Assembly: GCA_036936605.1 (NCBI GenBank)
Contig: JAUPFV010000002.1
Location: forward strand, 255,213,305 to 255,277,304
DNA: 64,000 nucleotides
Reading direction: 5' to 3'
Source: Limnanthes douglasii subsp. nivea
Taxonomy: Eukaryota > Streptophyta > Magnoliopsida > Brassicales > Limnanthaceae
Shown: positions 10,569 to 64,000 of the stretch, piece after piece
How the letters are laid out: every line of letters starts with the position of its first letter
Position numbering within the stretch: the stretch's first letter is position 1
The notes under the pieces: generated by a model
Database searches by the model: none
What the model was told of the DNA's origin: nothing
What the model saw: only the letters and a program-made list of their open reading frames with translations
Translations under genes and position numbers: made by a program

Positions 10569-10569
10569 T

Positions 10570-10946: not shown

Positions 10947-10963
10947 GTATCCCCTTTTTTAGG
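10947..10963 (-). promoter_or_regulatory. Element 2 polypurine tract
   Basis: On the minus strand the bases directly before the 3' LTR read CCTAAAAAAGGGGATAC, a purine-rich tract placed where plus-strand DNA synthesis is primed. The equivalent in element 5 (CCTAAAAAAGGGGCTCC) is nearly identical. Confidence 0.8.
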
Positions 10964-11313
10964 CCTTGTCAAATATCTTTGGAATGACTAAAAAATCTAC
11001 CCAGCCTGTAGTGACTTTGTCCGATCTGCCTGTGTAATCCGTACTAGGAGGTTTTATTCTCATTATTAACTCAATTCGAAGTCTGTCCGAACTGACTTCT
11101 CTTCCCAGAATTCTAAGAGTTTTATTTTTAGATCGTGGGACACATGTCAAAATCTGGTTTGACCAACTAGTCTTTTTTCTTTCTAGATCGACGCTCCCAC
11201 TAAGTCTAGAAAGTTACCTAAGCATTTAATTCTTCACACGTTTGCGCTGTATTTAATAATTTCCAAACCCTTTTCAACTTATCCTAGGTAACAGTCATTT
11301 TTTTCTACTGTTA

Positions 11314-11321
11314 TATAAATA
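11314..11321 (+). promoter_or_regulatory. TATA box of the element 2 antisense ORF
   Basis: TATAAATA lies 96 bp upstream of the ATG at 11410. The same box occurs at exactly the same distance in element 5. It lies between the LTR and the ORF, so antisense transcription would have its own promoter. Confidence 0.65.
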
Positions 11322-11409
11322 TTTTTTCACTATTTCATTGTCTTCATCACTTAAAAACTTTCTAGAGAAATTTTCACTCGTATCTTCAAACTTGTTCTTG
11401 AAGAGTTTT

Positions 11410-14327
11410 ATGTTCACAGCCAGAAACGCACTTGTTAAAGGCGGCTGATTAAACTTATCAGAGCTAGAAAGAGCGAGAAAAGTTGAAAGGGAGAATCACA
11501 TTGCTGTCGGTCTCTCAGTTTCCCCAAGTGAGAAGTCTGGTGAACCGACCCAATAAGCTGATCAAGGATCATCTTCTTCCAAAAATCCCAAGCCTAGACA
11601 GTTATTCAAACCAACCATATATGCTCTTCCCTCAGGCTCTTATATTCAAGAGTCTCAACCTTCAGTTGTTAAAGAAAAAGCGGTTTCAAGTGTCAGAAAA
11701 CCTCCCCCCTTCGTAGCCATGGGCTCAAACGCTGAGAAGTCCCCAGAGAAGTCCACCTTTCGCCGAACGACTCGCCTAACCAAAGTCCAAACTACTGCTT
11801 CACTGCCAAAGCCCTCCGGATCAGAGACATCTAAAGCAACCTCAAAAGATAAGCCCTTCGGATCGGAGGCATCTAAAGTAGCCCCAAGGGCCAAGTCCTC
11901 TGGATCCCAACCTCAACTGGACACCAGGCCTTCAGAAACAACAGGCGCTCATTCATCCAAACAGCCTTTGGTGCCAGAAGCTGACCCCCACTATCCAAGG
12001 CAACTGATAAACCTTTCATAGTGATGGAAGAAGTAATGGAAGACAGTACCAAAGAGGCTCCCTTTGAAACTGAATCATCAGGTCAAACCGAGGATGCTGC
12101 TTCTGAAAGGAAGGGAAAAGGAAAAGTCAAGGTTTACTTGACCCATCTGGAGCTTCCGGAGTGCCTAGAGGGTAAGGTAGGCCTTTGATTTAAAAATGTC
12201 AGTGTTAAATATCTGTTGGCTTTTCAAAATATCAACTATGTCTACACCCACACTACTGAGTTGGGTCGGATCCTGACAAATTAAGGATCCAAGATTCAAT
12301 GAAGGGAAAGATACTTGTCACTCCGGAGACTCCGATGGACTGTAAACTCAACGACGTGTTTATCTTCACTCATGTGCTAAACTGGGGACTTCGGTTCCCA
12401 TTGGACCCGGAAATTGTTAGATATTTCCACCTGGTTAAGCTCTGCCCAAGCCAGCTAAGCCTAAACGCCTGGTATTCTCTCATTGCTTGCATAATGGCAT
12501 CAAGGTTATCAAAAATCCCACTCCCAATGGAGCAATTTGCCGTTGTGGCAAGTCTGTGCAAGAATCACCATATCCCATTTTACCATCATAACATGGGGAA
12601 CAATTTCAAGGTGGTAGACGACTTGCTAGAGTCTGAGAAGAACTGGAGGACACAGTTCATGTTCATTAGTGGGACATGGGAGAACAGTAGGAAGATCAAG
12701 GCAAACACCAATCCCGACATGTTAACTAGCAGGTAGAAGAGTAGTGGTAAGTTTTTTATCTTTGTTTTTCATGTTTTTCTTTTTAAATCCTAAATACTCC
12801 CTTCCTGATTAATTTGTCATTCCTTTTTCAGTGCTGCCGAAGGAGTTCTCCAGACACCTAGAGGAGGGGAAAACAACCTGTGCCAAGCTTAACGCATGGG
12901 CTGTGGAGCTTTGGAGGAATGCCTTCTACAATTGCTTCACCTCAGGCAATCTTGTGAGGTCTCATATGTGGAACACCACAGGTTGGAGGGACCTCTCATG
13001 GGAAGAGCTAACTACGCCTCCTCCTCCTGGTGTAATTCTCAAGCGAACGGAGGCCAAAGATGATAAATTTGCCTTACCTTCCAAGGCTAAAGCTCCCAAC
13101 AAAATGAAAGGGAAGAAAAAGAAAGTTGCAGCAGAGTCGGTCCAAGCTGCCACAGAGGGGACTGGTTCGGAGAACCAAGGGGGAATGGACGTTGCCTTGC
13201 TCAAAATAGTAGATGCTGAGACTGTTAGGGAGGCGGGAGAGTCACAAAACCCACCAAAGCCTCCCAAAAAGGACCGGAATAGAAGGGCAAGCAGTGACAA
13301 AAAGGCTGCCAAAAAAGGAAAGTCACCTTAGGAGAAGAAATAATTTTTCGCCCTTCGAAGCTTCTACCTCCACCAGCCCCTGTTGATCCCACTCTACAAG
13401 AGAAGATCCCAACAGGACTGCAGTCCGGAGAGGTTGTTGGGGGAAGGATTGAAGGAGTAGACATTAGTGCCCTTCAATATATTTATTTATACTTCAATGA
13501 TTATGAGAAGGATGATTTCACAGGTCCCTATCGCCCTTCGAGCTCTGCTAACATGGTGAACTTTAATGGTAAGTCCTTTTCCGTCTCCAAAGAGCAAGAT
13601 GTTCTAAGTTATTCTCTTCTTGGTCACATCCAGCAAGTGCTTGACTTGGAGAGACACGTGAAAAGCCATACCACTCTCATAAATTCCCTCACCACTGACA
13701 AGGAGTTCTCTGTCAACCAATCTTCTCAATGCCAATCAGAGCATAGAAGAACTGAAGAAAGAGATAGAAGCATTGAAGAAGGACAAGGAAGATTTATCAA
13801 CCAAGCTGGCCACTTTGGAGACTTCCAGTACTGAGCTCCAAACTAAGTACTCGGGTTTGGAAAGGGACCTCACAACATTAAGGGAGGACCTGAAGACCAA
13901 AGATGGTGTCATTCAAACCCCGTCCGGTGTGAAGACTTCCTTAGAAGGTACTGTGTCTAAGATGGCCAAGGAGAAAAAAGACTTGGTGAAGCAGCAGGAG
14001 CAAGCTATTCAGGAAAGCATTGATAAGTATACCAACAAAGTGATAGATTCTCTTGAGAAAAGATACAATGAAGTCAGGTCTAACATGGTGTTGCTCTTCC
14101 ACGAAACCTTTCCGAAGAGGACCTTTGGTATCCTATGAATATATGTGGAATATGAAGACCTTCCTCATCATACCATGGCAACTGGTGACAAGTACAACTA
14201 CTCTAGTGGAATTGATTCCACTACAGATGATAAAGAGGGAACCGATGAGAATTCAAGTGTTAAAATCAAAAGTCCCAAGAAAGGCGATGGTGGTGAGACA
14301 TCCGAAGGAACAAGCCCTAAGGTTTAA
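11410..14327 (+). pseudogene. Element 2 antisense ORF (putative gypsy-type transposon protein), decayed
   Basis: This is the equivalent of the intact ORF at 58776-61736. It begins MFTARNALVKGG, is stopped at once by TGA, and continues in sense with LNLSELERA. A globular domain at 12299-12736 shows ETPMDCK, NWGLRFPLDPEIVRYFHLVK, LCPSQLS, MASRLS and LLESEKNWR. An intron fits at 12747-12831 (GTAAGT...TTTCAG). Exon 2 reads LPKEFS, TTGWRDLSWEE, a lysine-rich stretch, then a coiled coil and an acidic tail ending at 14327. It lies tail to tail with the integrase of the same element. Several stops and frameshifts make it non-functional. The domain resembles Pfam's putative gypsy-type transposon family; its role is unknown. 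Confidence 0.85.
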
Positions 14328-14838
14328 TCATATTTTTTTTATCTTTTCTGAACAGTTAAAGTCCTTGGATGGCCAAGGCATATTTTGTAATGTTATACGG
14401 TCAGAGTCCGGATAAGTCCTTGAAATACTTAAAGTCCTTAGATGGCCAAGACATGTTTTGTTCTTCCTATTCGGTTAAAGTCCGAATAGGTTTATTTATC
14501 AAACCTTTGTTTTACTTAATACTTTTTTTTCCTTTAAATTTTTAATGGCTAATGTTTAAGTAGCCTTTAGTATTTCAGAAGTATTAAAGTGAGAGTGTTT
14601 AATATCTCCGATGACATGTATTTAATGGTCATCACTCAACCAGGTTAATTCGATCTATTAGATTTGTACTTGAATTAAATTGTAGTTAAACCACACCAAA
14701 TGTTTTAAGAAGGCATCACATTTTATTGAATGAAAAAACCAGACACCTCATTAAAACCTCCCCGCGCCACCAGGGTAGGAAAGAGTATGCCCCATAATAT
14801 TTACGTTGATATTTAACAAGTAAATATTCACACAACTT

Positions 14839-16246
14839 TTATTCTAAATATAACCTGAGATGTTCAATATTCCATGGGTGCTTCAAAACCCTTCATTCTA
14901 TGTCCTGAAGCCTATATGTCCCAGGTTTAAGCTTTTCAGAGACCTCATAAGGGCCTTCCCAGTTCGGAAACATCCTTTCTTACCGAATTGCTTCTCCTTC
15001 GTGTGTAGGAAACCTTTTTTAAAACTTTATCTCCCAGTTGAAAATCTTTTCTCTTGACCTTGGAAGCAAACCTGCTCCTCATCAAGCCTTGGTAGTGGGT
15101 TGTTTTTAAGTGAGCTTTTACCCTTCTTTCTTCTATTAAGTCAACCTGATTCCTAATTGCTATCTTATTAGCCTGTTCAGAATAGCTATGAACCCCGTAT
15201 GATAATAGGGTAGCTTCAATGGGGGTAATGACATCCATCTTATACACCAAAGCAAAAGGTGATTCTTATGTATCATCCCGGTGAGTAGTTCAGTATGCCC
15301 ACAATACTTCTTGAAGATATCTTGGCCACTTCCCTTCAGCCCCTCTAGATTCGTTTTCAATCCGGACAAAATAGTCTTGTTGGCAACTTCAACCTGGTCG
15401 TTCGCTTGTGGATGGAAAGGAGAAGAGAAGCAGTGCTGGATGCCTCTAGAGGCACAAAAATTCTTCATATCCTTGTTATCAAACTGTGGCCCGTTATCTG
15501 TGTTAATTTTTTAAGGAATCCTAAATCTGCAACATATATTGGATAAGATGAATTTAATGACAGCTTTCGAAGTGGTTCCTGCCAAATGAGCTGCCTCTAT
15601 CCATTTCAAGAAGTCATCAATAGCAACTATAATAGTCCTGCATCCTCGGGACGCCATTGGCAGAGACCTAACTATATCCAATCCCCAATGACCAAAAGGT
15701 ACCGACTCAGAAATTGAATCCATAGGTAGTGCTGGCACATGAATTTCGTTGCCATACCTTTGGCATGGATCACACTTCTTTATCATTTCTTTGGCATCTG
15801 CCATTATGGATGGCCAATAGTACCCAGCCAACAATACTCTCCGGGTTAGTCTGTAGCCAAAATGTGCTGACCCTTCTCCATCATGTAGTTCAGATAAAAC
15901 AACTTGAGATTCTTTAACCCCCAAAGAACGTAAGAGAGGTCTACTGAAAGATTTTTTTATAGTGAACTTCCCTTATGATAAAAAATCCACGAGCCATGTG
16001 TTTAATTTTTCTTGCTATAACTTTTTCCGGAGGCAAAACCCCATCAAAAATGTATTGAAGAAGGGGAAATCTCCAATCTCTAGGTTGAACTACTTGTATA
16101 CTCAAGCTTTCCTCCTCTTCCTTGTTCTGGCTTGATTGTATGGATGGGAATTCTTGTACATGAATCCAAGGGTAGGACTCATAATATGCTATAGTTGCCA
16201 ATGAATCAGCTAGTGTATTCTCTGATCTAGGAATATGCTCAAACAA
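14839..16246 (-). pseudogene. Element 2 integrase
   Basis: Broken frames together give a gypsy integrase. They show an HHCC zinc finger ending CDPCQRY (near 15760), the core with GHWGLDI, TDNGPQFDN (near 15490) and DQVEVANKTI (near 15390) supplying the D, D and E of the DDE triad, and a C-terminal part ending HPWNIEHLRLYLE before a stop at 14839. A stop interrupts the core after CCRFRIP and others follow. It aligns along its length with the open integrase at 62176-63966. Confidence 0.9.
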
Positions 16247-16797
16247 ATAATTTTGAAGTTGGTTGCCACTTCTTTAAGAACGAGTAAGTATTTGATCAGA
16301 TGTTCCTTCTTGGCCTCAGATTGATCTTGAACATGATTTATAAGAAGTTGGGAATCACTCATCAACCTAACTCTTTTAGCCCCACATAGGAAAGCTAATT
16401 TAAGACCAGCTATAGCTGCTTCATATTCAGACTCATTGTTAGAGGACCTGAACCCAAAACATATAGCTTGGTACATTTTATCACCATACAGAGAGGTTAG
16501 GAAAATTCTAACTCCACAACCCATTATTCTTGATCCACCATCAGTCAGGACTACCCATTCTTTTTTGGTTTTCCCTTCTAAAACTTGTTTAGAACTCCTA
16601 TCCTGATGGAATTCTGCCAGTAAATCAGCTACAGATTGAGCTTTGATAGCAGTTCGTGGGGCAAAATCAATGTCATAATCACCCAACTCTACTGACCACT
16701 TGGTCATCCTGCTTGATATGTTTGCTTTTTGAAGAATATTCTTCAATGGAAAATATGCTCGGACAATCATGGAATGAAACTGAAAATACGACCTCAT
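16210..16797 (-). pseudogene. Element 2 second RNase H (Tat-type)
   Basis: A frame of 195 codons carries an RNase H fold with TDGGSR, NNESEYEAAIAGLKLA, MSDSQLL and, in the overlapping next frame, TLADSLATIA, the D-E-D-D catalytic set. This domain follows the usual RT-linked RNase H and precedes the integrase, the dual RNase H arrangement known for Tat elements. A frameshift near 16240 separates it from the integrase. Confidence 0.88.
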
Positions 16798-17998
16798 TTT
16801 CTTGCAGCAATCACTAAGGCTAGTGCCAAAATTTTAAGCTTAAAGTACATCTTCTCAGCATCTATCAGGCTTTTGCTGATGTAGTACACCGGAGGAGGGT
16901 AATTGTCCATCTCTCTTACCAATACTGCACTTATAGCGCATTCTGACACAACCAAATATACATAAAGTGTTTCCCCTTGTACGAGCTTATAAAGGGTCTT
17001 TGGTGAAAATAAATGTTTCTTTATTTCATCAAACGCTTGGCTGCATTGTGGAGACCAATTAAAGTATTTAGCACTCTTCAAGGATTGGAAAAACGGAGCA
17101 TACTTATCCGAAGATCTTGAGATAAAACGATTCAAGGCAGCCAACCTTCCAGTAAGCCTCTGGACTTCTTTAATATTTCGAGGAGGATCCATTTCTAATA
17201 AGGCATTCAACTGATCCAGATCGGGCTGTATCCCTCTCTCACTTATCACATACCCTAAAAAAATTCCGAATCAAACCCTAAAGACACATTTTTCTGGATT
17301 TAGTTTCAAATTCACAATGGTCAGATTGACAAAAGTTTCTTGAAGGTCAATTATATGCAAATTCTCCTCTAAGATTTTAACTATCATGTCATCTATGTAC
17401 ACCTCCATATTCCTGCCAATCTAATTAGCAAATTTTTTGTTTACTAGCCTCTGGTAAGTAGCCCCATCATTTTTCAGCCCAAAAGGCATCACCCTATAGC
17501 AATGGAGACCACTGTCTGTAACAAATGTAGTATGATTTTGGTCCTTCTGATCCACCTGTATCTGATTGTACCTAGAGAAGGCATCCATAAAGGACAACAA
17601 CTTGTTTCCAGATGTTGAGTCCACCAACTGATCTATCCGGGGGACTGGATAAAGATATATTAGGCAAGCTCTGTTGAGGTCAGTAAAATCAATACACATA
17701 GACATTTTCCGTTCTTTTTCTTGACTAACACCAGATTGGCAGTCCATAAAGGATACTAGGACTCCTTTATGTGCCCCATCTTGGTAAGCTGGTCAACTTC
17801 TTGGACTAATACATCAACTTTCTCCTTAGAGAAAGCCCTTCTTTTCTGCACAATAGGTGAAACATCACTCCGAATTGATAGTTTATGCGAGATAACGCTT
17901 GCAGGTACTCGTGTTACATCATAATTGCAACAAGAAAAAACATGTTGTTGATTGTCTGACAAAAAGGACAACAATTTATTTTTTAACTCTGGCGCCAT
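16794..17998 (-). pseudogene. Element 2 reverse transcriptase and first RNase H
   Basis: Segments in order are KMGHIKES, MCIDFTDLNRAC, PRIDQLVDSTSG, FMDAFSRYNQI, MPFGLKN.ATYQRLVNK and YIDDM (near 17397), followed by GYVISERGIQ, RLTGRLAALNRFI and the connecting/RNase H part with YYISKSL. YIDD is the intact catalytic motif. Stops after KKFAN and around 17250 break the frame. Confidence 0.92.
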
Positions 17999-18187
17999 CT
18001 TGGAGCCAACCTTAATACTTCTACCCTCTGCCAGGGGGTGGGTTTCAACTTATTCCACCGGTATTATAACACTAGGGGCCTCTTTAGGGTCATTAATCTC
18101 ACCCTCCCCCTCAGAAGGCCCCAGTAACTGCTAATCTTCATTAATTCGAACTGCTCCCAAAGTTTTAGGAGCAAGTGCAGTTGCATA

Positions 18188-18799
18188 TCACTCCCTTGGT
18201 ATCTTCTGACTACTTCGAACAACACCTACCTGTCCTTGAACCGCATACTTCAAACACTGATGGAATATTGAGGCTACAACATGCAATCTAGAGAGCAAGG
18301 ACCTCCCAAAGATTGTATTGTAACATGTGGGGAAATCTACCACAACAAATAACACTATGACCAAGTTTTTAGAAGACCCTTTGCCCAACCGCACCTCTTC
18401 CTCAAATTCCCCAATTATATCCGCACAGCTTCCTGTGAAGCCCACAATGGTTCTGTTTGACCGTTAAATAACGGCCGGATTTTTCATCTGCTTGTAAGAA
18501 CTTAAAAAAAGGATGTTTGCCGAACTGCCCGTGTCTATCAGAATTTGTCTGATACCATTGCCCCAAATAGATGCTCATATCACCACAGCATCCTCATGAG
18601 GCCCAATAATATTTCTTAAATCATCCTCATCAAAGACTATAAATGGAAAAGGGGTTTGGGACTGATAAAAAGACATGCCTCCTTCCAACTGAGTAGCTAG
18701 ATAGTGAACATGCCTTTTTCTTGATGAAGGAGTGGGCATTGTCATGATATCCTCTCCGAATATAGTGAGTGACTCAAATAAACTAATGAGTCCGGACAC
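18188..18799 (-). pseudogene. Element 2 protease
   Basis: Two frames (18799-18575 and 18445-18188) carry the FDEDDLRNIIGPHEDAVVI leader, then a region with MGFTGS, VIVLFVVVDFPTCYNTIFGR and LHVVAS. It is homologous to the element 1 protease at 8870-9454. The active-site stretch between the two open pieces reads ILIDTGS in the third frame near 18530. The break shows loss of function. Confidence 0.82.
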
Positions 18800-18811
18800 C
18801 GTTTTAGTTTG

Positions 18812-20485
18812 CTAAATTATGACCCCTATATTATTATGGGTTGGATCAGGATCCAGATACTCCAAATCAACATCAAATCTTTCAAGGATCACCATTGCCC
18901 CCTCGGGAGCAGATGTTCCCGCATTGTTCGTAGGGCCAGTTCGAGGAGCATTGTCACGCCTGTCTCTACTTTTTATTTTGACACAAGCCCCCAAATTAGC
19001 TCTTTCAATGAGATTCTGTACTTCCTGCTTTAGAGCAATGCAATCTTGCGTGTTATGGCCAATATCATTATGATATTGGCAAAAACAAGTATTTTGGTTG
19101 TCTCTGGGAGACTACAGTGCTGCTGGTTTCTGGAAATGGACTTCATCATTGGTTTTGTTATAAATTGTGGTCACACTCTCTTTTGATTATGCAAACCACT
19201 CCGCTTGAACCCAATGACCTCTTTTACTCCTTGATTGTTGACTATGAGTCTGATTCTGGTTGGATTGAGCCTGCTTAGCCCTGTTGGACCATTCTCCGGT
19301 CTCCTTAGTCTTATACCCGGACTGGTTTTGGTTTTGAGCTGCTGGGGTGGACCTCACCTGACGGTGCACCCTGGTTTTCTTGGTTTCATCCACGTTAATC
19401 TGCTTTCCCACCTGATTTAACAAGCCACCCCAAGCCATAGCCTTCTTCTTGGTCACCGAATCAGCCAGATTCATAGGGTTCAACCCTTGTCTCAAAGAAA
19501 CAATTGCCATATGTTCGAAGCAATCTGCTAACCTGTTCTTGGTATTTATGAACTGACTTATTTAGTCTTTTAAGGACTTATTTGGCTCTTGGGTACAATG
19601 GATGATAGTATCTCCATTTCCCTTCACCTCTTTACTTCCCACAAATTGCCTTCGGAAGGCAACCCATAATGTATCAAAATTTCTGATACACCCCTGAGGT
19701 AAGCTGTTGTACCACTTAAGAGAATTTACCTTAAAAGATTGGGAGAAGGCTCAACACAGAAGTTTGTCATCATCATCAAAATTCATCATGAAGTTCTTGA
19801 ACTACTCCAGATGATTATCCGGATCCTTACTCCCATCATACTTCTCCATTTTGGAGCTGTCAAACCTTTTGGGTAGGTTTCCGTACAGTATTTTAGAAGA
19901 CAAAGGAGATTGTCTCCAATTCCTATTACGAAGGAAGATCGTGTCTTCATTAGGTGTTGCAAAAATACCTGGTTCGGTCTGAAAGCAAAAGGATCGATCA
20001 GCAACTAATCTACATGCATGTGACTGTGGCTGTGAGATGACCCTTTGCCCATATGCCTTTTAAGTATCCCATGCATATCTTTATTTCTTGAATATTTTTA
20101 ACTAGTTTTTATTTCTTCCTAGACCTCCCTTCATCACTGCTTGATGACACAGACTCCTCAAGCTCATCCTCGTTCGAAGAGCTGTTGGAGGACTAAGAAT
20201 CTGAACTTTCATCGGGCTTGGACCGGTGGGTCTTCTTAGAACTGACATGGTCTTTTTTTTTTAACTCAAATGAGTCTTTGCTGATGGATCATTCTCCATA
20301 GGATTATCAATATGATGGATGGCTAACGCCCTTAACTTCTCTTTTATACCCATTTATTCTTGTTTTATGACCCGCAATGCCTCTATTTCTGCTCTCAACT
20401 TGTCTCGTTCTTCGATGGTGTATTCCTTCTTTTCCCCAACTACCTCCACCACCGGTGGTGGAGTTGCTTGCTCGTTTGGATCCAT
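18812..20485 (-). pseudogene. Element 2 gag
   Basis: The frame appears to start at the ATG at 20485 (MDPNEQATPPP). It is followed by a charged helical stretch, LPKRFDSSKMEKYDGSKDP, the gag core with KWYNSLPQGCI and RRQFVGSKE, a Q/N-rich stretch and the zinc-knuckle variant CQYHNDIGHNTQDCIALKQE near 19085. It ends near 18812 at the protease boundary. Several stops and frame changes are present. The gag core matches that of element 1. Confidence 0.83.
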
Positions 20486-20540
20486 CCGAACAGGTCTTTT
20501 CTACTGGTTTTGAATACAAGATTCAGACACTATCGCCTCC

Positions 20541-20557
20541 CACTGTGGTCACCAATT
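20541..20557 (-). promoter_or_regulatory. Element 2 primer-binding site, degraded
   Basis: Immediately inside the 5' LTR the minus strand reads AATTGGTGACCACAGTG. It stands where element 1 has TTGGCGCCATCTGTGGG and shares the TTGG and the CTGTGG/CAGTGG part, so it looks like a mutated or divergent PBS of the same type. Confidence 0.55.
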
Positions 20558-20931
20558 TGGTTTGGTTTATTTTAGGTTGGGGTAATATTATAAAGTGTTT
20601 TGTAAAATATTTTGAGTATTAAATATTTGGTATAAAGTAGTGAGAGATTTGAGCAGCCTGGTTGTATTGAATGTTCATTACCTCTATTAATACAAGTGGT
20701 TAGGGTATTTATACCCTTAATCAAAGACTCATGAGCTTACAAGTCAAGTTATGAAACCGGGTCGAGTTTAAGGAACCATTAATCTTTGAAGCTGATTAGC
20801 ACATAACTTAGTCAAAATGTATTCAAGCGTTTACTTTTATCCTGTCTGAATAGTTCAGTGGTACGCCATTGTCCGAATCGCCCTTGTCCGGATAATACAG
20901 TGGGCTGTGACTGGATAATCCGAACTCATCA
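20558..20931 (-). repeat. Element 2, 5' LTR
   Basis: 374 bp matching 10570-10946 with scattered substitutions and small indels. Outer end CTCATCA at 20931, followed at once by element 1 gag in sense (GACCCTGACAA on the minus strand). The minus-strand TATA-like region lies around GTATAAATACCC near 20715. Confidence 0.92.
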
Positions 20932-21771
20932 ATTGTCAGGGTCTTTCTTCCTATCGTATTTTTCGAGCTTCGAGATATCAAAGCGCTTCGGGAGATGTCC
21001 CGACAAGATTTCATTAGAAAGAGAGGACGACCTCCAATTATGTCTGAGGCTGAAAGTTCCGCCTCTTAGACCTTCTACATGACTTGCAAATAACCCTTCC
21101 TTAAGTGGGTTTGCAAATTGGCTTCCGACCCTGTAGCCATAAGACTGGCTCCCTGATGGGAATTGAAACTGGGGGCCATTGTGTTGTTCCCTGTTAACTG
21201 TGACTGCCCACTTTTTCAACAGACGTTGGAGTCACTTTGTCGACGCTGTCACCTTGAGGTTTGGCCTTTGCTCGTTGTGACTTACGCATTCAAAGTTCTC
21301 GCTCTCTGGTCATTCTTTTATCCTTTCTGAAGCCTCGGAAATCCTTGTCCGGGGAAGAAGACTCACACATATCTTCCCAGTTGAGTATTCATACCCATGC
21401 TTGGCTCGGAATCCAAACTTCTTTCTCGCAACCTCGCTGATCCTTCGCACTCGAGTTCTACCTTTGTAAAAGTCCATTTCATCCCGGTCGACAACGCGAT
21501 TGGCCTCTTTTCCTTCCTCACACGATCGTTCGCTTCGACCGTCGAGCCGACACTTCTTTTCAGCTAAATCCATCTTTTTCTCAACATTTAGCTTAGCAAT
21601 GTCATCCAACAACTGTTTCCGGGTCATGATTAGGGTCAACCGCTTGCTTCGGCCCTGATTACCCTGGTCGTCATCACCAAACAGCTCTTCAGAGTACCGA
21701 TCCTCTGAATAAGACATCTCATTGTCAGAATCTCTTTCCTTTGCCTTTCCCTTTCTAGCCTCGGTATTCAT
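20932..21771 (-). pseudogene. Element 1 gag, 5' part
   Basis: The minus strand from the ATG at 21771 (MNTEARKGKAKERD) gives a charged 153-codon frame. A second frame (21219-20929) ends LPKRFDISKLEKYDRKKDPD. The next residues of the gag lie 10.4 kb away at 10560. Compare element 2's own gag, where KMEKYDGSKDPDNH runs on without interruption. This pins the insertion point of element 2. Confidence 0.88.
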
Positions 21772-31432: not shown

Positions 31433-33198
31433 TCATTCTTCTGAAGAGCTCGCCCACAAATTCTCAGCTTCATCATCCTCAACGACATTGGTAAACGGCA
31501 CCAGGTGCTTCACGTTGAACACGTCATGGGTCTTCATGTTGGTGGGTAGCTTTAACCTGTATGCATTGAGATTAATCTTCTTAACTATTTCAAACAGGCC
31601 CACCTTCCTTGCAGCTAGTTTGTTGTACTCGTGTGCAAGATATCGATCTCGGGTCAAAACTGCCCATACAAAGTCCCCTACTGAAAACTCCACCAGTCGG
31701 CGCTTCCTATATGCGACAACCTTGTATTTTTGAGTTGTTTCTTTCAGGTGTTTGCGCGTGTTCTCATGGATCTCCCATAGATCAGCGATGGTGGTCTCGA
31801 CCCTGGCTGCAACTTTGTCAAGCGTTTTGAAAGACAAATCCATGGGACCCCGTGGGTTATAACCATAGACTACCATGAAGGGACTTTGCTAGTACTGTGT
31901 TTATGATGCATGTTGTAGGCGAACTTAACGTGATAAAGTTGGGAATCCCATGATTTCAAGTTGTCGGAGACCTTTGTACGCAACATGGTGCCTAACGTTC
32001 GATTAGTTACCGCGGTTTGGCCGTCTGTCTGCAGGTGATATGAGCTGCTAAAATTCAGGTTTGTGTTTGTAAGACGCCACAAACTCCTCCAAAAGTTCCC
32101 AACAAACAGCGTATCGCGATCATAAATGATATTCAAGGGTAGGCCATGTAAGCGGTAGACCTCTCAGAAGTATAAATTAGCAATATTCACAACTGATGAG
32201 TCCGAATTCGAAGAGCTCCCCGGAAGGGTAGTCCAAAGTAAATCACCCCGTAAAACCGGACAGACTCCATGACTTCAATTCGAACAGCACTGGTTGAACC
32301 GGACAGATGATTTTGAAACACTGCAAACATAAAGCAGTTCGAACTATGACTAAAGTACTAAGAAAACCTAATCACTATCTGACTAAGCTACCTGTGCATC
32401 TGCTTAAAACTCATGGGTCTTTGAACATGACCCGGGTCCATTAAACTTGACCCGAAAGCCCATAAGGGCCCAAATCTTACACTATAAATGCCCAACCACC
32501 AGCATTAACTATGGGTAAGAAAAATTAACTGCTGCCAGGCTGCTTAATTCTCTCTCTACCCTTGAAACACTTTGAAACACCCTGAAATATCTTAAAACAC
32601 CTTTAAACACCACCACACCACCGTGAAACACCCTTACGCCGCCTTAAAACTCCACTTAAAATTACCAGCCTACCCTCAGGCTACTTTTATCCTCACCAAC
32701 AACAACCGTGTTTTTCTTACAGGAAATAAAGTGGGACATCTTAGAAAACCTGTCAACCACCACAGAAATAGAATTGTTATCTCTCTCTATTCTCCGCAGT
32801 CCAGAGACGAAATCCATGTTGACGCTTCGCCACGGTCCCTCCGGTATAAGGAGTGGTAGGTATAGACCTGCGTTGGAGGATGTGCATTTTGCCATCTATC
32901 AAACCCAACAACCAACTACAAAATGGATAACATCTCTCCTCAAATATGGTCAGAAGAACTGACTGGATATACAATGAAGGGTTTGATCTCTACCACAATG
33001 CCCTTTGTTGTGTTTCTCTTGTACAATCAATAACCTCAAACTGCTATAAAGGATACATAGTAAGTTACCTCTGAAGAGGTAGTCGTTTCTCACTACAAAA
33101 TCTTTTATCAAACATGCCATGATGTCCTCCAGAATGAAACCAATATATGGATCGATAGCCAGTAATTCTTTCATCATCCTGAATCCATAACCTCTCAT
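31433..33198 (-). pseudogene. Element 3 integrase, interrupted
   Basis: The zinc-finger part lies near 33050-32890 and the core start near 32880-32710 (GPWRSVNMDFVSGL, VVVDRFSKMSHFI). After the inserted solo LTR the core resumes with LNIIYDRDTLFVGNFW, YHLQTDGQT and NRTLGTMLR (32150-31990), then the C-terminal part (31876-31433) with HENTRKHL, FSVGDFVWAVL, KVGLFEIVKKIN and THDVFNVKHLVPF. The usual DR.P.F motif reads DRDTLF, and TDGQTAVTNRTLG keeps Q but has A where the catalytic E of QTEVVNR is expected. Confidence 0.9.
32194..32698 (+). mobile_element. Solo LTR of the element 5 family
   Basis: 505 bp starting TGATGAGTCC and ending CTCACCA, flanked by perfect 5-bp duplications ACAAC (32189-32193 and 32699-32703). 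It is the reverse complement of the LTR at 57848-58349 over its full length with few differences, so it is a recent member of that family. A solo LTR arises when recombination between the two LTRs removes the interior. It splits the integrase core of element 3 and therefore landed after element 3 inserted. Confidence 0.95.
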
Positions 33199-57059: not shown

Positions 57060-57847
57060 CTAAAATTTTATCTGACCCTCCTATTGCTCAGTCACCCGGC
57101 CATACTTGTCCGAAGCGAAAAAAAATGTGACCTTGATATTTCTAAAAAATCTAGCAAGACTTCTCTATTTCTTTCGATAGGCGATAAACGTCAAGTAATT
57201 GAGAAAGCTAAAGGCGACCGTACAAAAAGAAAGAAATGTTCGGAGTCGACGACCAAAATAATTTGATTGTCTACATAGAGATTTTGAAATGGGATGTTCG
57301 ACTCTGTCTAGACCATGCTCTAGTAGAATAATTTGATTTGATAAAGCTATATTTGGCCCAAGTCGACCCTAATATGTGGTTCACATTGATGGCCTGTATT
57401 TTAGCTTCTCGGATTGCCAAAATGGAACAATTCGTTGAGCTGATAAATGTTGCCAACAACTCTCGTTTTCCCTTTTACTCGTTAAATCTTTGCAGAAAAT
57501 GCATGATTTTAAACGACCTTTTAGAGGCTGATAGAAAGTGGAAGCATAGATTCATCTTCATCTCCAGCTTATGAGAAAAAACCCTTTGAAAACTCTGCTG
57601 AGATACCCCATCATCTTACGTTGAAATGGAGCAGTCAAGGTATTTATTTACACTTTTGCTTTATCTTTATTTACTCAATTTATCTGCTATACTAAATTTT
57701 TCTATGGGGGAAACAATGAACGGAATCTCCAAACCGTTCGAGAACCAGGTTAAATCATCTAGTCGGATTTGTGCATAGTTGAGCTATTGAGAAAGCAGTT
57801 CTTGGTCCCATCAATTCCATAGATGTTTTACTCCTTTGAATATGGCC
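57060..57847 (+). pseudogene. Element 6 antisense ORF, interrupted relic
   Basis: A frame at 57338-57574, with the codons just before it, aligns with the globular domain of the element 5 antisense ORF: KLYLAQVDPNMWFTLMACIL against KLCPSQLSPNGWYTLMSCIM, then ASRIAKMEQFVELINVANNS, FPFYS and LLEADRKWKHRFIFIS. A donor-like site (CAAGGTATTT) follows at about 57637, the same relative intron position as in elements 2 and 5. The sequence is cut at 57848 by the LTR of element 5. It is more divergent than the other copies. Confidence 0.8.
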
Positions 57848-58349
57848 TGGTGTGGATAAAAGTAGCCTGGGGGTAGGCTGGTAATTTTAAGTAGAGTTTT
57901 AAGGCAGCGTAAGGGTGTTTCACGGTGGTGTGGTGGTGTTTAAAGGTGTTTTAAGATATTTCAGGGTGTTACAAAGTGTTTCAAGGGTGGAGAGAGAATT
58001 AAGCAGCCTGGCAGCAGTTAATTTTTCTTACCCATAGTTAATGCTGGTGGTTGGGTATTTATAGTGTGAAATTTGGGCCCTTATGGGCTTTCGAGTCGGG
58101 TTTAGTGGACCCGGGTCATGTTTAAAGACCCACAAGTTTTAAGTAAGTGAATAGACAGCTTAGTCAGATAGTGTTTAGGTTTTTTAGTACTTTAGTCATA
58201 GTTCGAACGGCCTTATGCTTGCAGTGTTCAAAATCACCTGTCCGGATCAATCAGTCCTGTTCGGATCATAGTCTTGGAGTCTGTCCGATTTTCGGGGAGT
58301 TTTACTTTGGACTACCCTTCCGGGGAGCTCTTCGAATTCGGACTCATCA
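57848..58349 (-). repeat. Element 5, 3' LTR
   Basis: 502 bp, plus-strand ends TGGTGTGG and GACTCATCA. Repeated short units of the kind AAGGTGTTT/CAGGGTGTT mark 57900-57990. TATTTATAGTGTG near 58058 read on the minus strand gives a TATA-like CACTATAAATA. It is nearly identical in layout to 32194-32698 reversed. Confidence 0.95.
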
Positions 58350-58366
58350 GGAGCCCCTTTTTTAGG
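58350..58366 (-). promoter_or_regulatory. Element 5 polypurine tract
   Basis: Minus strand CCTAAAAAAGGGGCTCC directly before the 3' LTR; matches the tract of element 2 apart from two bases. Confidence 0.85.
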
Positions 58367-58679
58367 TATTTGAACAAGTGTCCTTGTTAAAGAACTGAAA
58401 AACAGTCCGATTTCGGAAGTGGTTTTCCGATTCGAAGAGAGTTGAGACAGGCCCGGACAGCCCAACCGTTACGAATTCCAAACGGTTCTTTGTCAGGAGT
58501 AGTGGGACACGTGTCACCCTCTGGTTGGCCACTCCAGCCGTTTTTCTACCTCGAAAATTACACCACTTTATTGAATAGGTAACTTCTTTAAATGGTTTTG
58601 ATGACGTCAGCGCCGTCTTTTAATCATTGCCCAACTTTTCGGATTCTCCTAGGAATCAAACCCCCTTTTTTACATTTAC

Positions 58680-58687
58680 TATAAATA
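58680..58687 (+). promoter_or_regulatory. TATA box of the element 5 antisense ORF
   Basis: TATAAATA is 96 bp upstream of the ATG at 58776, the same spacing as in element 2. The region between the box and ATG is pyrimidine-rich (TTCATCTTTCACAGTCTC), like a plant leader. Confidence 0.7.
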
Positions 58688-58775
58688 CTATTCATCTTTC
58701 ACAGTCTCATTTTCACTTTGCCATTTTACTCAAAACTTCATCTCTCTAAAACCTTAAGATTTCCTTAATCGTTTT

Positions 58776-61736
58776 ATGTTCACAGCAAGAACAGCTTTAA
58801 TCAAGGGTGGCTGGCTCAATCTTTCAGAACTAGAGAGAGCTCAAAGAGTTGAAAAAGAGAAAAGGATTGCAGCAGGGCTTCCAGCATCGCCAGTTGAGAG
58901 ACCAGCCACTTCAATCGAAGAATCTGATAGAGGTTCATCTTCTTCGAAAGGTACAAAACCTAGAAAACTCTTTCGAACGACACTCTCCCCCATCGTTTCA
59001 GACTCTTCAGTTCAAGAGTCAATTCCTGTCGTCGAACCAGGAGTTACTGTTACGAGTGTCAAGAAGAAATCTACTTTTATTGCCATGGGCTCCGACTCCG
59101 ATCATTCCCCAGACAAGCTGATCATGAAAAGACCAAGCAGGTTGGTCAAAGGACTCTCCTCAAAGAATACTAGTGAGTCAGGGTCCGGGACAACTGTTAG
59201 GACCCTCCGGGAGAGGCCGGTCGGTCCGGAAGCTAGTAGTCCACTGCCTCCAAAGGAAACTTCGACCTCAGAGACTCAAGCTGAGGTGAAAACCCAAAAA
59301 CATTCAACGAGCCGCCAGTCCGGAGGATCAGCTGTACCAAGCTTCATCCCTCCCCGGGCCGTTTCTGCAGAAGCTCCCCCAACAGTAATGGAGGAGAGGA
59401 TGGAAGACTCCATAGAGGAGGCTAGGTTTGAGTCCGAGTCTTCCGGACAAGCTGACACTGCCATAGTTGTTGCCAAGAAAGGCAAAGAGGACTTATACCT
59501 GAGCCGTCCGGATCTGCCGGAGAGCCTTGAAGGGAAAGTTGGTCCCTGCTTTCACAAGGTAGAATTTAAGTACCTTTTGTCTTTGTTAAAAACCAAGTAC
59601 ATGTTTATTCACACTAGGGATTTGGGACGGCTTCGCACTAAGTGGGGGATCCCTGAAAATGTAAAGATTCGAATTCCCATCGACCCGGAGACCCCGATGG
59701 ATTGCAAGAGAAACGAGATTGTCTTTTTTACAGAGCTGTTTAATTGGGGACTCAGGTTCCCATTGGATCCGGAGATAGTGCGCTATTTCCATTTGGTCAA
59801 GCTATGTCCATCGCAGCTGAGTCCCAACGGATGGTACACCTTGATGTCATGCATAATGGCGTCCAGGCTGTCCGGAATCCCTTTTCCCATGGAAGAGTTT
59901 GCTGCTGTGGCAAGTCTATGCAAACATCACCAGTTCCCCTTTTATCACTTTAATATGGGGAACAATCTGAAAGCCGTTGACGATCTCCTGGAATCGGAGA
60001 ATAAATGGAGGAGCCAGTTCTTGTTTATAAGTGGCTCATGGGAGAATGGGAAGAAGATTAAGATTGGGGAGAATCCTAGCCTTCTTCGAAGTAGATGGAG
60101 AAGTGATCGTAAGTTCTTTCTTTAAGTTTCTATTCGAATCTTCCCTTCTTTAAGCTTTCACTAACTTAATTATTCTTTTGTTTTGCTAGAACTGCCAAAA
60201 GAGTTCGGAGACTATGCAAAAGCCGGACAGGTTACCTGTGGCAAAATAAACACATGGGCCGCAGAGAACTGGGAGAACCGGTTTCACAAGGCTTTCACTC
60301 CGGGAAACTTAGCCAGATCTCACCTGTGGAACACCACAGGTCGAAGGGATTTAACCTGGGAGGAGTTTTCCACCCCTCCTGATGATGACGTTGTGCTGAG
60401 AAGGTCTCATGAGCTAGATGGGACCCTTTTCCTCCCTCTCCGGGCCAAAGCCCCGAGTAAAATGAAGGGCCAAAAGAAGAAAGGGAGGAAAACAGCAGCG
60501 GATACAGAGAAAAAGACTCCAACTGACACAGAGGCGCCAGTCCCAGATCAAGTCGATGCAAACCTTCTACAGGTGGTAGAAGTGGAAAGTAAGAAACACG
60601 GAGAGACTCCCTCAAAACCTCTAAGGGCCTCCAAACGAACTCGCAAGCAAGCAAGCGATAGTGCTGACAGAGAAGTAAAAAAGAAGAAGACTTCTCAAGA
60701 AGAAGAGTTCGCTGTCCGGGATCCGGAGCCCACTTTCCCAATTGACCCAACGTTGGCTGAAGCGATCCCAGAGAATCTTAACGAAGGAATTCCAGGGGAG
60801 CTCCATACTGATGAGATTGAAAAGGGAGAGATCAATATGGACGAAGTGGATGTCACCGGCCTGGGTCCTCTAGGTGATTACTTTCTTGGTTTGCCAAGAG
60901 ATGAGTTTGCTGGGCCATACGTTCCTCCAAGTAGTTCCAACACAGTGAACTTTAATGGCCAGACTTTCTTGGTTTCCAGCGAAAGGGACATTATAGCTCA
61001 CTCCCTCCTTAGCAACGTGCAACCTGTGCTCACCCTGGAAAGGCAAGTCCGGAGTCAGGCAGAAACCATTAAGGAGCTTAAGTCTGAGAAGGAGAAACTG
61101 TCCGGTGACCTCCGGGGTGCCACTACCCAGATTGACTTGCTTAAGGAGTCGAACGAACAGCTGAAGAGGAGTAAAGATGAAAGCAACACAAAAGTTGCCT
61201 CTTTGGAGAAAACCCTAGAAGATCTCCGGGCTAAGCTGTCCGAGTTGGAGAAAGACTTGAAAACCTCAAAAGATGAGACTGCAGCAAAAGAAAAGATTGT
61301 CACCAATCTGACTACTGACAAACTTACTTTGGAGAATGCAGTGACTCAGGCTGTTGGTGAGAAAGCTGCCCTGGTGAAGGATCAAGAGGCCATGATCAAG
61401 GCCAAAATCAATGCTTATGCCAAGGAGATGCTACGGAGTGAGGAATTATTGATTGAGAAGGTGAAGTCCGACATGGTCCTCCTATTTCACGAGAAGTTCC
61501 CGAAGAGGAGACTTGGGGACTTATGGCGTTATGTGGATGATGATGATCTTCCATATTGGACCATGGTTGATGAAGGGTATACTGATATATCCTCATCTGG
61601 TGACGAGGAGGAAACCGGAGAGAGTCCGGGTGAAGAAGAGGCTGACCCCAAAGGCAAGAAGGTCATTGAGGAACAAAGTGATATCAAGACCAAGGGAATA
61701 GATGAGGGTGAGCCATCTTCAAAGGCTCCCCCTTAG
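58776..61736 (+). CDS. Antisense ORF of element 5, two exons, 959 codons
   Basis: Exon 1 (58776-60108) and exon 2 (60190-61736) join in frame across an 81-bp intron (donor GTAAGTTC, acceptor TTTTGCTAG), giving 959 residues. Residues 1 to about 240 are low-complexity, rich in Ser, Glu and Lys. Residues about 245-445 form a compact domain with ESLEGKVGP, ETPMDCK, NWGLRFPLDPEIVRYFHLVK, LCPSQLS, MASRLSGIPFPMEEFAAVAS and LLESENKWR. It resembles the family named putative gypsy-type transposon. A conserved part follows (LPKEFGDYAK, NTTGRRDLTWEEF), then a lysine-rich basic region, a long coiled coil (about 725-850) and an acidic tail. The gene is antisense to gag-pol, ends 439 bp from the integrase stop, and has its own TATA box. 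Additional antisense ORFs are known in some Tat elements; the function is unknown. Confidence 0.9.
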
Positions 61737-62175
61737 ATGGTAATTTATTCTGCTTACTTTTTGTTCGAACCAAAGTCCTTGGAAGGCCAAGGCACCTTTT
61801 TTGTGATGCTGTCCGTTTTGACCGGACAGATTTTTGTATTGTGTTTAAACTTGTTTAAAAAGTCCTTGGAAGGCCAAGGCAACTTTAAGTTTATTGAATG
61901 GATGTTTTATTTTGCACAACCTTTCTCTTATTCCATAGTTTGTTTAAGTATTTCGTATTGTGAGAGTGTTTAATTTCTCTGGCTAGGATTTAAATAGCCC
62001 TTAGAACTTTCAGTCCGGGTAGCATGGTAATCAACAGAATTTTGCAAAAACTTAGAAAATTTATTCAAAAAAGCTCCAAGTTTCATTTAAAGCTCTCCGT
62101 GGCGCCAGAGAGGGGTAGTGGTATGCCCCCAAATATTTACATGGATGTTTAAACAAGTAAATATTTACATAAGTT
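61737..62175. other. Spacer between convergent ORFs of element 5
   Basis: 439 bp between the two stop codons. It contains a near-repeat, AGTCCTTGGAAGGCCAAGGC, at about 61772 and again at about 61860, also found in element 2 (AAAGTCCTTGGATGGCCAAG near 14357 and AAAGTCCTTAGATGGCCAAG near 14430). This could hold transcript-end signals for either ORF. Confidence 0.6.
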
Positions 62176-64000
62176 TCATTCCAAATACATTCGAAGGTGT
62201 TCAATGTTCCAAGGGTGAGTTAAAACCCTGCCATCTTTGTCTTCCAGCCAGTATGTGCCAGGCTTGATTCTTTCAACCACAGTATACGGACCCTCCCAGG
62301 TTGGGGCCAGCTTTCCGAAGAGCTTTTCCTTGGTGTGCAAGAAAACTTTCCTCAATACTTTATCTCCTGGTTGAAAGTCCCTTCTTTTAACCTTGGAAGC
62401 AAACCTGCTTCTCATCAAGCCCTGATAGTGTGCTATTCTAAGATGAGCTTTTACTCGCCTTTCTTCAATCAAATCAAGCTGATTTCTGATTGCTACTTCA
62501 TTAGCCTGTCCGGAGAAGTTATGAACACGAAAAGAGGGGAGTGTCTTCTCTATGGGAGCTACTGCATCCATCCCATAGACCAAGGCAAAAGGTGATTCTT
62601 GTGTGGCAGCCCCAGGCGTTGTCCGGTATGCCCACAAGACTTCTTGTAAATAACTAGGCCACTTCCCAGCAGCCCCTTCCAGATTTTTCTTTAAGCCGGA
62701 CAGTATTGTTCTATTAGCCACCTCAACTTGCCCATTGGCTTGTGGGTGGAATGGTGAAGAAAAGCAGTGCTGAATACCCCTTGAGGCACAGAAGCTCTCC
62801 ATTTCTCGGTTGTCAAACTGTGGCCCATTATCTGTTGTTATTCTCTGAGGGACACCAAATCTGCAACATATGTTGGATAGAATGAATTTTATAACAGCCT
62901 TTGATGTTGTTCCTGCTAAGGGGGCTGCTTCTATCCACTTCGAAAAGTAGTCGATGGCTACAATCATGGTTTTACGCCCTCCGGACGCCATAGGGAGAGG
63001 CCCAACTAAGTCCAATCCCCATCGAGCAAAAGGGATAGGCTCAGAAATTGATTCCAAAGGGATGGCTGGTACATGAATTTCATTGCTGTACCTTTGGCAT
63101 GGGTCACACCTTCTTACCAGTTCCTTGGCATCTTTCATTATTGAAGGCCAATAATATCCGGAGAGAAGCACTCTTCTTGTTAACGCTCTAAATCCACAAT
63201 GGGCTGATCCCTCACCATCATGTAATTTGGAGAGAACAATTTGTGACTCATGATCTCCTAAACAGCGTAGGAGAGGTTTGCTGTAGGATTTCTTGTACAA
63301 GACCTCTCTAATCATGATGAAACCATGAGCCTTGTGTTTTAACGTTCTGGCTTGTGATTTAACCAAGGGTACGACGCCATCGGACAGATATTGTATAAGT
63401 GGAGACCTCCAATCTTGAGGTTTATTTACTTGTATTTCAAAAACTTCCTCTTTCTCCCCTTCATCAAGTTGAATAGAAGGACTTTCAAGCACATGGATCC
63501 ATGGATAGGACTCCGTATATGCTATTGTTGCCAATGAGTCTGCCAGTTCATTCTCTGCTCGGGGAATGTGCTCATAGACAACAGCTTTAAACTTCATTGC
63601 CTCATTTTTCAAGAGAAGTAAATACTTGATTAACTGTTCTTTTCTAGCTTCTGATAGGCCCAAGGCATGGTGAACAAGCAATTGGGAGTCGCTTAACAGC
63701 TTGACCCTTTTTGCTCCACAAATGTAAGCCAATTTTAATCCCGCTATAGCTGCTTCGTATTCGGACTCGTTATTGGACGCCCTAAAAGCAAAACAAATAG
63801 CTTGAAACATGTTGTCCCCATAAGGAGAGGTAAGACATATTCCTGCCCCAGATCCTATGGCACTAGATCCTCCATCTGTTCGGAAAATCCACACTTTTTT
63901 GTCTTTTGAATCAGCAGGTTGTTCTGAGTCCCTATCAGAATGGAATTCGACGAGAAAATCTGCCACAGCTTGAGCCTTTACTGCTGTTCGAGGAGCAAAG
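62176..64000 (-). CDS. Element 5 pol: second RNase H and integrase, partial
   Basis: The frame is open from the window edge (FAPRTAVKAQAVADFL across 63999-63950) to the stop at 62176. Counting from the Met at 63966, the Tat-type RNase H occupies about residues 25-150 with catalytic D31 (TDGGSS), E69 (NNESEYEAAI), D93 (SDSQLL) and D143 (LADSLA). The integrase zinc finger has H249, H256, C287 and C290 (CDPCQRY); the core has D319 (GLDLVGPLP), D379 (TDNGPQFD) and E415 (QVEVANRT), with 35 residues between the last two. The C-terminal domain ends HPWNIEHLRMYLE. Every expected catalytic residue is present and no stop or frameshift occurs. Integrase inserts the element's cDNA into chromosomes in the nucleus. 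gag, protease and RT lie outside the window. Confidence 0.95.
   Translation of the reverse strand, partial: FAPRTAVKAQAVADFLVEFHSDRDSEQPADSKDKKVWIFRTDGGSSAIGSGAGICLTSPYGDNMFQAICFAFRASNNESEYEAAIAGLKLAYICGAKRVKLLSDSQLLVHHALGLSEARKEQLIKYLLLLKNEAMKFKAVVYEHIPRAENELADSLATIAYTESYPWIHVLESPSIQLDEGEKEEVFEIQVNKPQDWRSPLIQYLSDGVVPLVKSQARTLKHKAHGFIMIREVLYKKSYSKPLLRCLGDHESQIVLSKLHDGEGSAHCGFRALTRRVLLSGYYWPSIMKDAKELVRRCDPCQRYSNEIHVPAIPLESISEPIPFARWGLDLVGPLPMASGGRKTMIVAIDYFSKWIEAAPLAGTTSKAVIKFILSNICCRFGVPQRITTDNGPQFDNREMESFCASRGIQHCFSSPFHPQANGQVEVANRTILSGLKKNLEGAAGKWPSYLQEVLWAYRTTPGAATQESPFALVYGMDAVAPIEKTLPSFRVHNFSGQANEVAIRNQLDLIEERRVKAHLRIAHYQGLMRSRFASKVKRRDFQPGDKVLRKVFLHTKEKLFGKLAPTWEGPYTVVERIKPGTYWLEDKDGRVLTHPWNIEHLRMYLE

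What the first reader, a model, noticed from the sequence alone, without database searches (positions are those of the whole stretch)
58680..61736. Antisense gene in a Tat retrotransposon with its own TATA box at a fixed distance
Elements 2 and 5 each have TATAAATA exactly 96 bp upstream of the antisense ATG (11314 to 11410, 58680 to 58776), outside the LTR, although the two elements have diverged and element 2 is full of stops. In element 5 the ORF is open for 959 codons. That points to a dedicated antisense promoter driving a selected protein, not a chance ORF. Additional ORFs in Tat elements are known in general; the conserved promoter geometry is the part I have not seen described.
Basis: partly seen in the sequence, partly recalled or inferred. 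Interest (0 to 1): 0.75.

Follow-up and report, generated by a model that had tools for sequence, protein, structure and literature searches.

The report
Retrotransposon's backward gene with own promoter
A plant jumping gene carries a second, backward-facing gene with its own start signal and intron that is kept under selection, and the element is also studded with one short DNA word that could be what this little-understood protein recognises.

Summary
In detail: TATAAATA lies 96 bp before the antisense ATG in both elements, outside the LTR. The 959 codons need removal of an 81-nt intron, matched in element 2. In the 39 best-matching other copies of element 5, spacing is 96 bp in 39 and the box is TATAAATA in 38. 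Of 26 element-2-like loci with an aligned ATG, 24 keep TATAAA, level with the best-kept 6-mers upstream (median 4 of 26); spacing there is 93-98 bp. dN/dS is 0.09-0.18 between groups of open copies and 0.07 in 30 element-2-like loci. So it is a selected gene with its own core promoter. The kind is known (antisense TRP28 ORFs of Retand; own promoter of maize Grande gene23). New: both elements are enriched for TYCGRA (31 vs 5.9, 34 vs 6.6; rest of window 34 vs 41.5). I suggest, unproven, that these are the antisense protein's target sites. No transcript was seen, and other LTR lineages could not be tested.

The parts
57848..58349 (-). Element 5, 3' LTR (element lies on the minus strand)
   Evidence: 92% match to 32193-32698; end read at ...CTCATCA next to the pyrimidine-rich PPT complement
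58504..58516 (+). GGGACACGTGTCA, G-box-like word (label recalled), aligned with GGGACACATGTCA at 11137-11149 in element 2
   Evidence: upstream alignment
58647..58653 (+). TCCTAGG block, 33 bp before the box (32 bp in element 2, 11282-11288)
58680..58687 (+). TATAAATA, antisense TATA box of element 5
   Evidence: TATAAATA in 38 of 39 near copies, 96 bp in 39 of 39
58710..58775 (+). Predicted 5' UTR if transcription starts about 30 bp after the box; no upstream ATG in either element
   Evidence: the start point is inferred
58776..60108 (+). Antisense gene exon 1 (N-terminal S/P/T-rich part, then the TRP28-like region)
60109..60189 (+). Intron, 81 nt, GTAAGT...TGCTAG, phase 1 (predicted from sequence)
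   Evidence: GT and AG in 39 of 39 near copies
60190..61736 (+). Antisense gene exon 2 (basic NLS-like run, predicted coiled coil about aa 725-850, acidic tail)
61777..61792 (.). CCTTGG-AAGG-CCAAGG palindrome after the antisense stop, repeated at 61864-61879; element 2 has one at 14363-14378
62176..63810 (-). pol part of element 5: aRH-type RNase H (RVT_3), then integrase
57848..64000 (.). Element 5 part in the window: 31 TYCGRA words against 5.9 +- 2.4 expected
   Evidence: also 73
10568..20934 (-). Element 2, both LTRs present (10568-10949, 20556-20934): 34 TYCGRA words against 6.6 +- 2.5 expected
   Evidence: also 73
11314..11321 (+). TATAAATA, antisense TATA box of element 2
   Evidence: core kept in 24 of 26 related loci with an aligned ATG
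11410..12746 (+). Element 2 antisense exon 1 (broken)
12747..12831 (+). Element 2 intron, 85 nt, same place and, in the local frame, same phase
   Evidence: frames
12832..14327 (+). Element 2 antisense exon 2 (broken; end approximate)
57254..57847 (+). Third, old remnant of a TRP28-type antisense gene, ending at element 5's LTR
   Evidence: tblastn 29% over 202 columns, E about 4e-23
32193..32698 (+). LTR of the element-5 family, opposite orientation
   Evidence: 4 TYCGRA against 0.3 expected

Best explanation
Between pol and the 3' LTR this Tat (Retand-type) retrotransposon carries a second gene on the opposite strand. SHOWN from sequence: a TATA core promoter outside the LTR, about 96 bp before a conserved ATG; a short phase-1 intron with conserved ends; a protein of 959 aa (107 kDa) under strong purifying selection. 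INFERRED: RNA polymerase II starts about 30 bp after the box, independently of the LTR, and makes a spliced mRNA for a nuclear protein with a TRP28-like region, an NLS-like run and a coiled coil. INFERRED AND LESS SURE (about 0.3): the protein acts as a dimer on DNA of its own family, binding the dispersed palindromic CpG word TYCGRA (core CCGGA in element 5), and so regulates or protects the element's chromatin, as VANC and TnpA proteins do for DNA transposons. A promoter separate from the LTR would let the regulator be made before or without genomic RNA. The confidence given is for the gene with its own TATA promoter and a selected protein, not for the last step.
For: Box and spacing: two elements; 38 and 39 of 39 near copies; TATAAA core in 25 of 30 element-2-like loci; TATATA, ATATAA and TATAAA kept in 24 of 26; next best 21; median 4. 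Low promoter and 5' UTR divergence. Selection on the protein: dN/dS 0.09-0.18 between groups of open copies, 0.07 for the 149-aa piece in 30 element-2-like loci, pN/pS 0.22 in the TRP28 core between elements 2 and 5 with synonymous sites saturated, against 0.195 for pol pieces. Spliced frame open to the end in 25 of 39 near copies. Intron at the same place and phase, GT and AG in 39 of 39. Motif.
Against: No transcript, start site, splicing or protein was seen. The copies are the best-scoring hits, so they are biased towards similarity and share history. The intron is also less diverged than four-fold sites, so part of the low promoter divergence may come from recombination or a raised synonymous rate. 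The Pfam TRP28 match is below the curated cut-off (16.5-19.7 against 26.2 bits) and the element-2 piece gives none. Nothing ties the protein to TYCGRA directly. In a ranking of single hexamers the element-2 interior is led by CACCGG, with TCCGGA only 55th. The test of whether motif CpGs are better kept than other CpGs was inconclusive (p 0.14 and 0.08). The structure prediction was too poor to use.
Confidence: 0.85

Rival explanations
1. The gene and promoter are real, but TYCGRA has nothing to do with the antisense protein: it is the site of a host factor, or reflects sequence-context mutation or methylation in this lineage.
For: No binding evidence. Another CpG palindrome, GYCGRC, is in excess in the middle of the window (15 vs 5.3), so repeats can carry their own word excesses; ACCGGT is somewhat high in element 2 (3 vs 0.7). 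Motif CpGs are not significantly better kept than other CpGs. Other LTR lineages were not tested.
Against: The excess is absolute, not seen in the rest of the window, found in LTR, promoter, coding and intergenic parts and, for the antisense gene and pol of element 5, beyond 1,000 synonymous shuffles. Four matched CpG palindromes are not enriched in elements 2 and 5.
Confidence: 0.5
2. The antisense RNA, not the protein, is the product under selection (dsRNA or siRNA regulation of the sense transcript).
For: Raised as a possibility in PMC7264820 (passages).
Against: dN/dS 0.07-0.18 and kept splice-site dinucleotides mean that the protein is selected; an RNA role could exist besides.
Confidence: 0.05
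3. The box is kept by descent or for a sense-strand role in the 3' untranslated region, not as an antisense TATA box.
For: The same DNA is part of the sense transcript's 3' region; much of the upstream region is well kept (column identity 0.71-0.88 in 20-base bins).
Against: The TATA 6-mers lead all 6-mers from -300 to -6, they lie 93-98 bp from the antisense ATG, and in elements 2 and 5 no ATG lies between the predicted start and that ATG.
Confidence: 0.06
4. Chance: an AT-rich window yields TATAAATA often, and two coincide.
For: TATAAATA occurs 14 times in the window on both strands.
Against: Box kept in 38 of 39 further copies and its core in 24 of 26.
Confidence: 0.01

Closest known systems
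Retand elements with antisense TRP28 (PF04195) ORFs (Vicient 2025, PMC11963269; abstract, section 11 part 1 of 2, discussion and passages seen)
   Same: Antisense ORF between pol and 3' LTR with a TRP28-like region; Smc-like matches in some members; protein of unknown function, predicted there to bind DNA.
   Different: The words TATA and intron do not occur in its text, and promoter occurs only in its reference list. Here: TATA geometry, a conserved intron joining two ORFs, dN/dS, and an element-wide motif.
Maize Grande gene23 (Gomez-Orte 2013; not held, known from its title and from passages of PMC7264820)
   Same: Antisense accessory gene in the 3' internal region, nuclear protein, transcription from a promoter upstream of the gene.
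   Different: There transcription was measured. Whether gene23 has a TATA box at this spacing, or an intron, I could not read.
VANC proteins of VANDAL transposons (PMC5735166, PMC10398659; passages seen)
   Same: Short motif enriched in the element's own family and rare in other elements; motifs differ between families.
   Different: VANC motifs are non-palindromic, in same-orientation tandem arrays mainly in non-coding DNA of a DNA transposon. TYCGRA is palindromic, dispersed and also within genes of a retrotransposon. Binding is not shown here.
TnpA of Spm/En (one passage in PMC10398659; the rest recalled)
   Same: Transposon-encoded protein linked to demethylation of its own element.
   Different: DNA transposon; no sequence relation tested.

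Membership tests
Tat clade, Ogre/Retand type | Extra RNase H (aRH) between RH and integrase (stated in PMC6317226, passages) | tested here: met
   RVT_3 directly before integrase in element 5. In element 2, pieces in the order RVT_1, RT_RNaseH_2, RVT_3, then integrase by homology.
Retand (against Ogre) | Antisense ORF between pol and 3' LTR | tested here: met
   58776-61736 on + while pol 62176-63810 is on -.
Retand (against Ogre) | Place in the reverse-transcriptase tree | not tested
   Element 5's RT lies outside the window; no tree was built.
TRP28 / Transposase_28 (PF04195) | Pfam match above the curated cut-off | tested here: inconclusive
   Best match 19.7 bits, E 0.00099, cut-off 26.2; element-2 piece no match. 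An earlier survey reports PF04195 in 23% of Retand elements (PMC6317226, passages).
Antisense gene with its own promoter (Grande gene23 type) | Core promoter upstream of the ORF, outside the LTR | tested here: met
   Sequence level only.
Antisense gene with its own promoter (Grande gene23 type) | Antisense transcript starting there | not testable with these tools
   No RNA data.
VANC-type anti-silencing | Motif enriched in own family, not elsewhere | tested here: inconclusive
   Enriched in elements 2 and 5 and above expectation in 29 of 29 related loci, not in the rest of the window. Other LTR lineages of the genome could not be tested because the machine was busy.
VANC-type anti-silencing | Motif in tandem arrays in non-coding DNA | tested here: not met
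   TYCGRA is dispersed, also within coding sequence. So it is not filed as VANC.
VANC-type anti-silencing | Protein binds the motif and removes methylation | not testable with these tools
   Needs binding and methylation data.

The most novel reading that the evidence does not exclude
The antisense TRP28 gene of Tat/Retand retrotransposons encodes a sequence-specific regulator of its own family: a dimer made from a private TATA promoter that binds a dispersed palindromic CpG word, TYCGRA, across LTR, promoter and genes, and keeps the element active or hypomethylated. That would be a VANC-like self-recognition system in an LTR retrotransposon, with the preferred word differing between families because protein and sites change together.
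Probability: 0.28. Interest if true: 0.85.

Novelty: new variant of a known kind. Interest (0 to 1): 0.55.

Why it matters
Antisense TRP28 genes were found in 97% of recently active Retand clusters, and their role is called unknown (PMC11963269, abstract). Strong selection, a promoter of its own and a predicted spliced mRNA argue that the protein does something for the element. The TYCGRA excess gives that open question a concrete target: one binding assay on one hexamer could say whether an LTR retrotransposon has its own self-recognition factor. It also warns annotators that such genes can contain introns, so ORF-length filters may split them.

Tried and rejected
Relatives outside the host genome: none in the protein collection (7,996 candidates scored, none at E <= 0.001), none confirmed in viral contigs or genome contigs, none among solved structures at E <= 1. 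Judging by their descriptions these collections hold few plant sequences, so this says little.

Fold of the TRP28 region: mean pLDDT 35.6 with two sequences; not searched further.

Complete turnover of motif sites: in the stretches compared, 2 of 29 element-5 sites coincide with one of 17 element-2 sites (2 of the 31 element-5 sites, in the intron and after the stop, were not compared). Within the element-2-like family several positions are kept in up to 22 of 29 loci. So turnover holds between families, not within.

Selective keeping of motif CpGs: trend only, p 0.14 (14 motif CpGs against 74 others) and 0.08 (9 against 52).

The third remnant at 57254-57847 was considered as a third test of the geometry and left out: its 5' end cannot be aligned with confidence.

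Two paper searches returned nothing because of their wording.

Not achieved: TYCGRA in copia elements, and distant TRP28 families of this genome; the search machine stayed busy.

Full report
What was checked. The window holds two Tat-type retrotransposons on the minus strand with an antisense gene on the plus strand: element 5 (57848 to beyond 64000) and element 2 (10568-20934, LTRs 88% identical). TATAAATA is at 58680 and 11314, the ATGs at 58776 and 11410: 96 bp in both. Both boxes lie beyond the LTR and polypurine-tract junction (my reading).

The gene. Element 5's genomic frame is 449 codons. An 81-nt intron with GTAAGT and TGCTAG lies at its end; removing it gives 959 codons and a terminal stop. 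Element 2 has an 85-nt intron at the same place and, in its local frame, the same phase (my reading). The protein is 107 kDa with an S/P/T-rich N-terminal part, a region weakly matching PF04195, an NLS-like run, a coiled coil (Pfam coiled-coil matches, all below cut-off) and an acidic tail. Between elements 2 and 5 the TRP28 core is 69% identical with pN/pS 0.22; exon-1 pieces together give 0.38 (bootstrap 0.33-0.43), and synonymous sites are saturated. The pol yardstick is 0.195 (0.154-0.238), so exon 1 as a whole is less constrained than pol and the TRP28 core about as much. Element 2 has since decayed, so these values are upper bounds for the selected period.

Host genome. After eleven unanswered tries the window's own genome was searched: 1.78 Gb, 633 contigs, 12,250 first-look candidates for element-5 DNA, of which 40 were scored. 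All 39 hits other than the window's own were fetched. TATAAATA is in 38 of 39 (one TATATATA); 96 bp spacing, ATG, GT and AG are in 39 of 39. The spliced frame is open to the end in 25 of 39; 11 have an earlier stop (one of these, L035, was also fetched short) and 3 a length not divisible by three. Between four groups made of the 25 open copies and the window's own, dN/dS is 0.09-0.18. Choosing open copies leaves out nonsense changes, which by itself would hardly give so low a ratio (my judgement).

Is the promoter itself kept? Over 40 sequences, mean pairwise difference is 0.017 for -200..-97, 0.006 for the box, 0.015 for the 5' UTR and 0.023 for the intron, against pS 0.109 for codons 1-235 and 0.151 for the first 100 codons. 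At A/T sites it is 0.014 upstream and 0.004 in the 5' UTR, against 0.079 at four-fold A/T sites of the first 150 codons and 0.042 over all of exon 1; non-CpG G/C sites give 0.021 and 0.040 against 0.169 and 0.087. The intron is low too (0.015 at A/T sites), so recombination or a raised synonymous rate may contribute.

Second family. The element-2 piece found 70,856 first-look candidates, of which 150 were scored and 30 given as loci. In these 30 (element 2 itself included) the TATAAA core is found in 25, at 93-98 bp from the ATG. The five others are one with a mutated box, one without a box, and three whose 5' part did not align to an ATG. Of the 29 other loci 26 have an aligned ATG. In these, TATATA, ATATAA and TATAAA at -98 to -96 are kept in 24 of 26, more than any other 6-mer from -300 to -6 (next 21, median 4). 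dN/dS of the 149-aa piece over 30 loci is 0.07. So the box is a conserved feature of at least two families whose synonymous sites are saturated against each other, with a spacing near 96 rather than strictly 96.

An unexpected feature. Element 5 looked rich in CCGGA words. Counting showed CCGGAC 19 against 1.4 and TCCGGA 12 against 1.2 in element 5, TCCGGA 10 against 1.3 in element 2, and TCCGGA 2 against 5.2 in the rest. Grouped as the palindrome TYCGRA: 31 against 5.9 +- 2.4 (element 5), 34 against 6.6 +- 2.5 (element 2), 34 against 41.5 +- 5.9 (rest). The word was picked after seeing the data, so it was tested further. Among 1,300 degenerate palindromic hexamers it ranks 2 in element 5 (after YCCGGR, same core), 1 in element 2, 1 in the element-2 interior that has no counterpart of element 5 in the window (12 against 2.2), and 1,224 and 1,075 in two control stretches. 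Among single hexamers TCCGGA ranks 1 in element 2's antisense-gene stretch but only 55 in the element-2 interior, which is led by CACCGG. Four matched CpG palindromes are not enriched in either element. Synonymous-codon shuffles give 4.2 +- 1.8 against 13 seen in the element-5 antisense gene (maximum 11 in 1,000) and 2.1 +- 1.3 against 7 in pol (maximum 6). It is densest in LTR, antisense promoter and exon 1 of element 5 (10.0, 7.0 and 7.5 per kb; exon 2 only 1.9). The non-palindromic CCGGACAG lies 4 and 5 times on the two strands, CCGGAC 6 and 13 times. In 29 element-2-like loci the total is 357 against 82.5, every locus above its expectation, but AYCGRT is also somewhat high there (73 against 42), and these loci are related, so they are not 29 independent tests. 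Between the two elements 2 of 29 compared element-5 sites coincide. One literature search, for TCCGGA with retrotransposon and motif, listed 5 papers, which I saw as a listing only; one concerns a plant solo LTR (PMC2898664) and was not opened. So I cannot say more than that I did not meet the motif in print.

Reading. The antisense gene with its own TATA promoter is well supported. The kind is known: 97% of recently active Retand clusters have antisense TRP28 ORFs (PMC11963269, abstract), and Grande gene23 is said to be transcribed from a promoter upstream of it (PMC7264820, passages; part 1 of 3 of its text). The function is called unknown, with DNA binding predicted (PMC11963269, section 11). 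VANC proteins bind a short motif enriched in their own VANDAL family (PMC5735166, passages). In sunflower, Retand elements show locally reduced CG methylation while CHG stays high (PMC12844716, passages). I therefore propose, at about 0.3, that TYCGRA marks the target of this protein. Against it: no binding data, no tandem arrays, motif CpGs not significantly better kept, and no test of other LTR lineages. Passages only were seen of PMC6317226, PMC3091746, PMC10398659, PMC12859917 and PMC11728184. Gomez-Orte 2013 and Steinbauerova 2011 are not held.

Noticed in passing
57848-64000 and 10568-20934: TYCGRA hexamer enrichment in both Tat elements and not in the rest of the window; used in the report as a candidate protein target.
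   Followed up: partly
61777-61792, 61864-61879, 14363-14378: CCTTGG-NNGG-CCAAGG palindromes after the antisense stop, between the convergent antisense gene and pol; beside them a CTGTCCG...CGGACAG hairpin at 61809-61829. Possible termination, processing or binding sites.
   Followed up: no
57254-57847: Old remnant of a third TRP28-type antisense gene into which element 5 seems to have inserted.
   Followed up: partly
24870-25982: Degenerate pol remnant (aRH and integrase-like, 27-45% identity) on the plus strand; no significant antisense-gene match nearby.
   Followed up: no
20935-57847: Another CpG palindrome, GYCGRC, is in excess in the middle of the window (15 against 5.3); its source was not looked for.
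   Followed up: no
16667-20555: CACCGG is the most enriched single hexamer of the element-2 interior (5 seen, z 6.2); not explained.
   Followed up: no
L009-L047: Open copies fall into groups whose divergence differs sharply by domain (TRP28 dS 0.02 against 0.19 for the N-terminal part in one pair), which suggests recombination between subfamilies.
   Followed up: no
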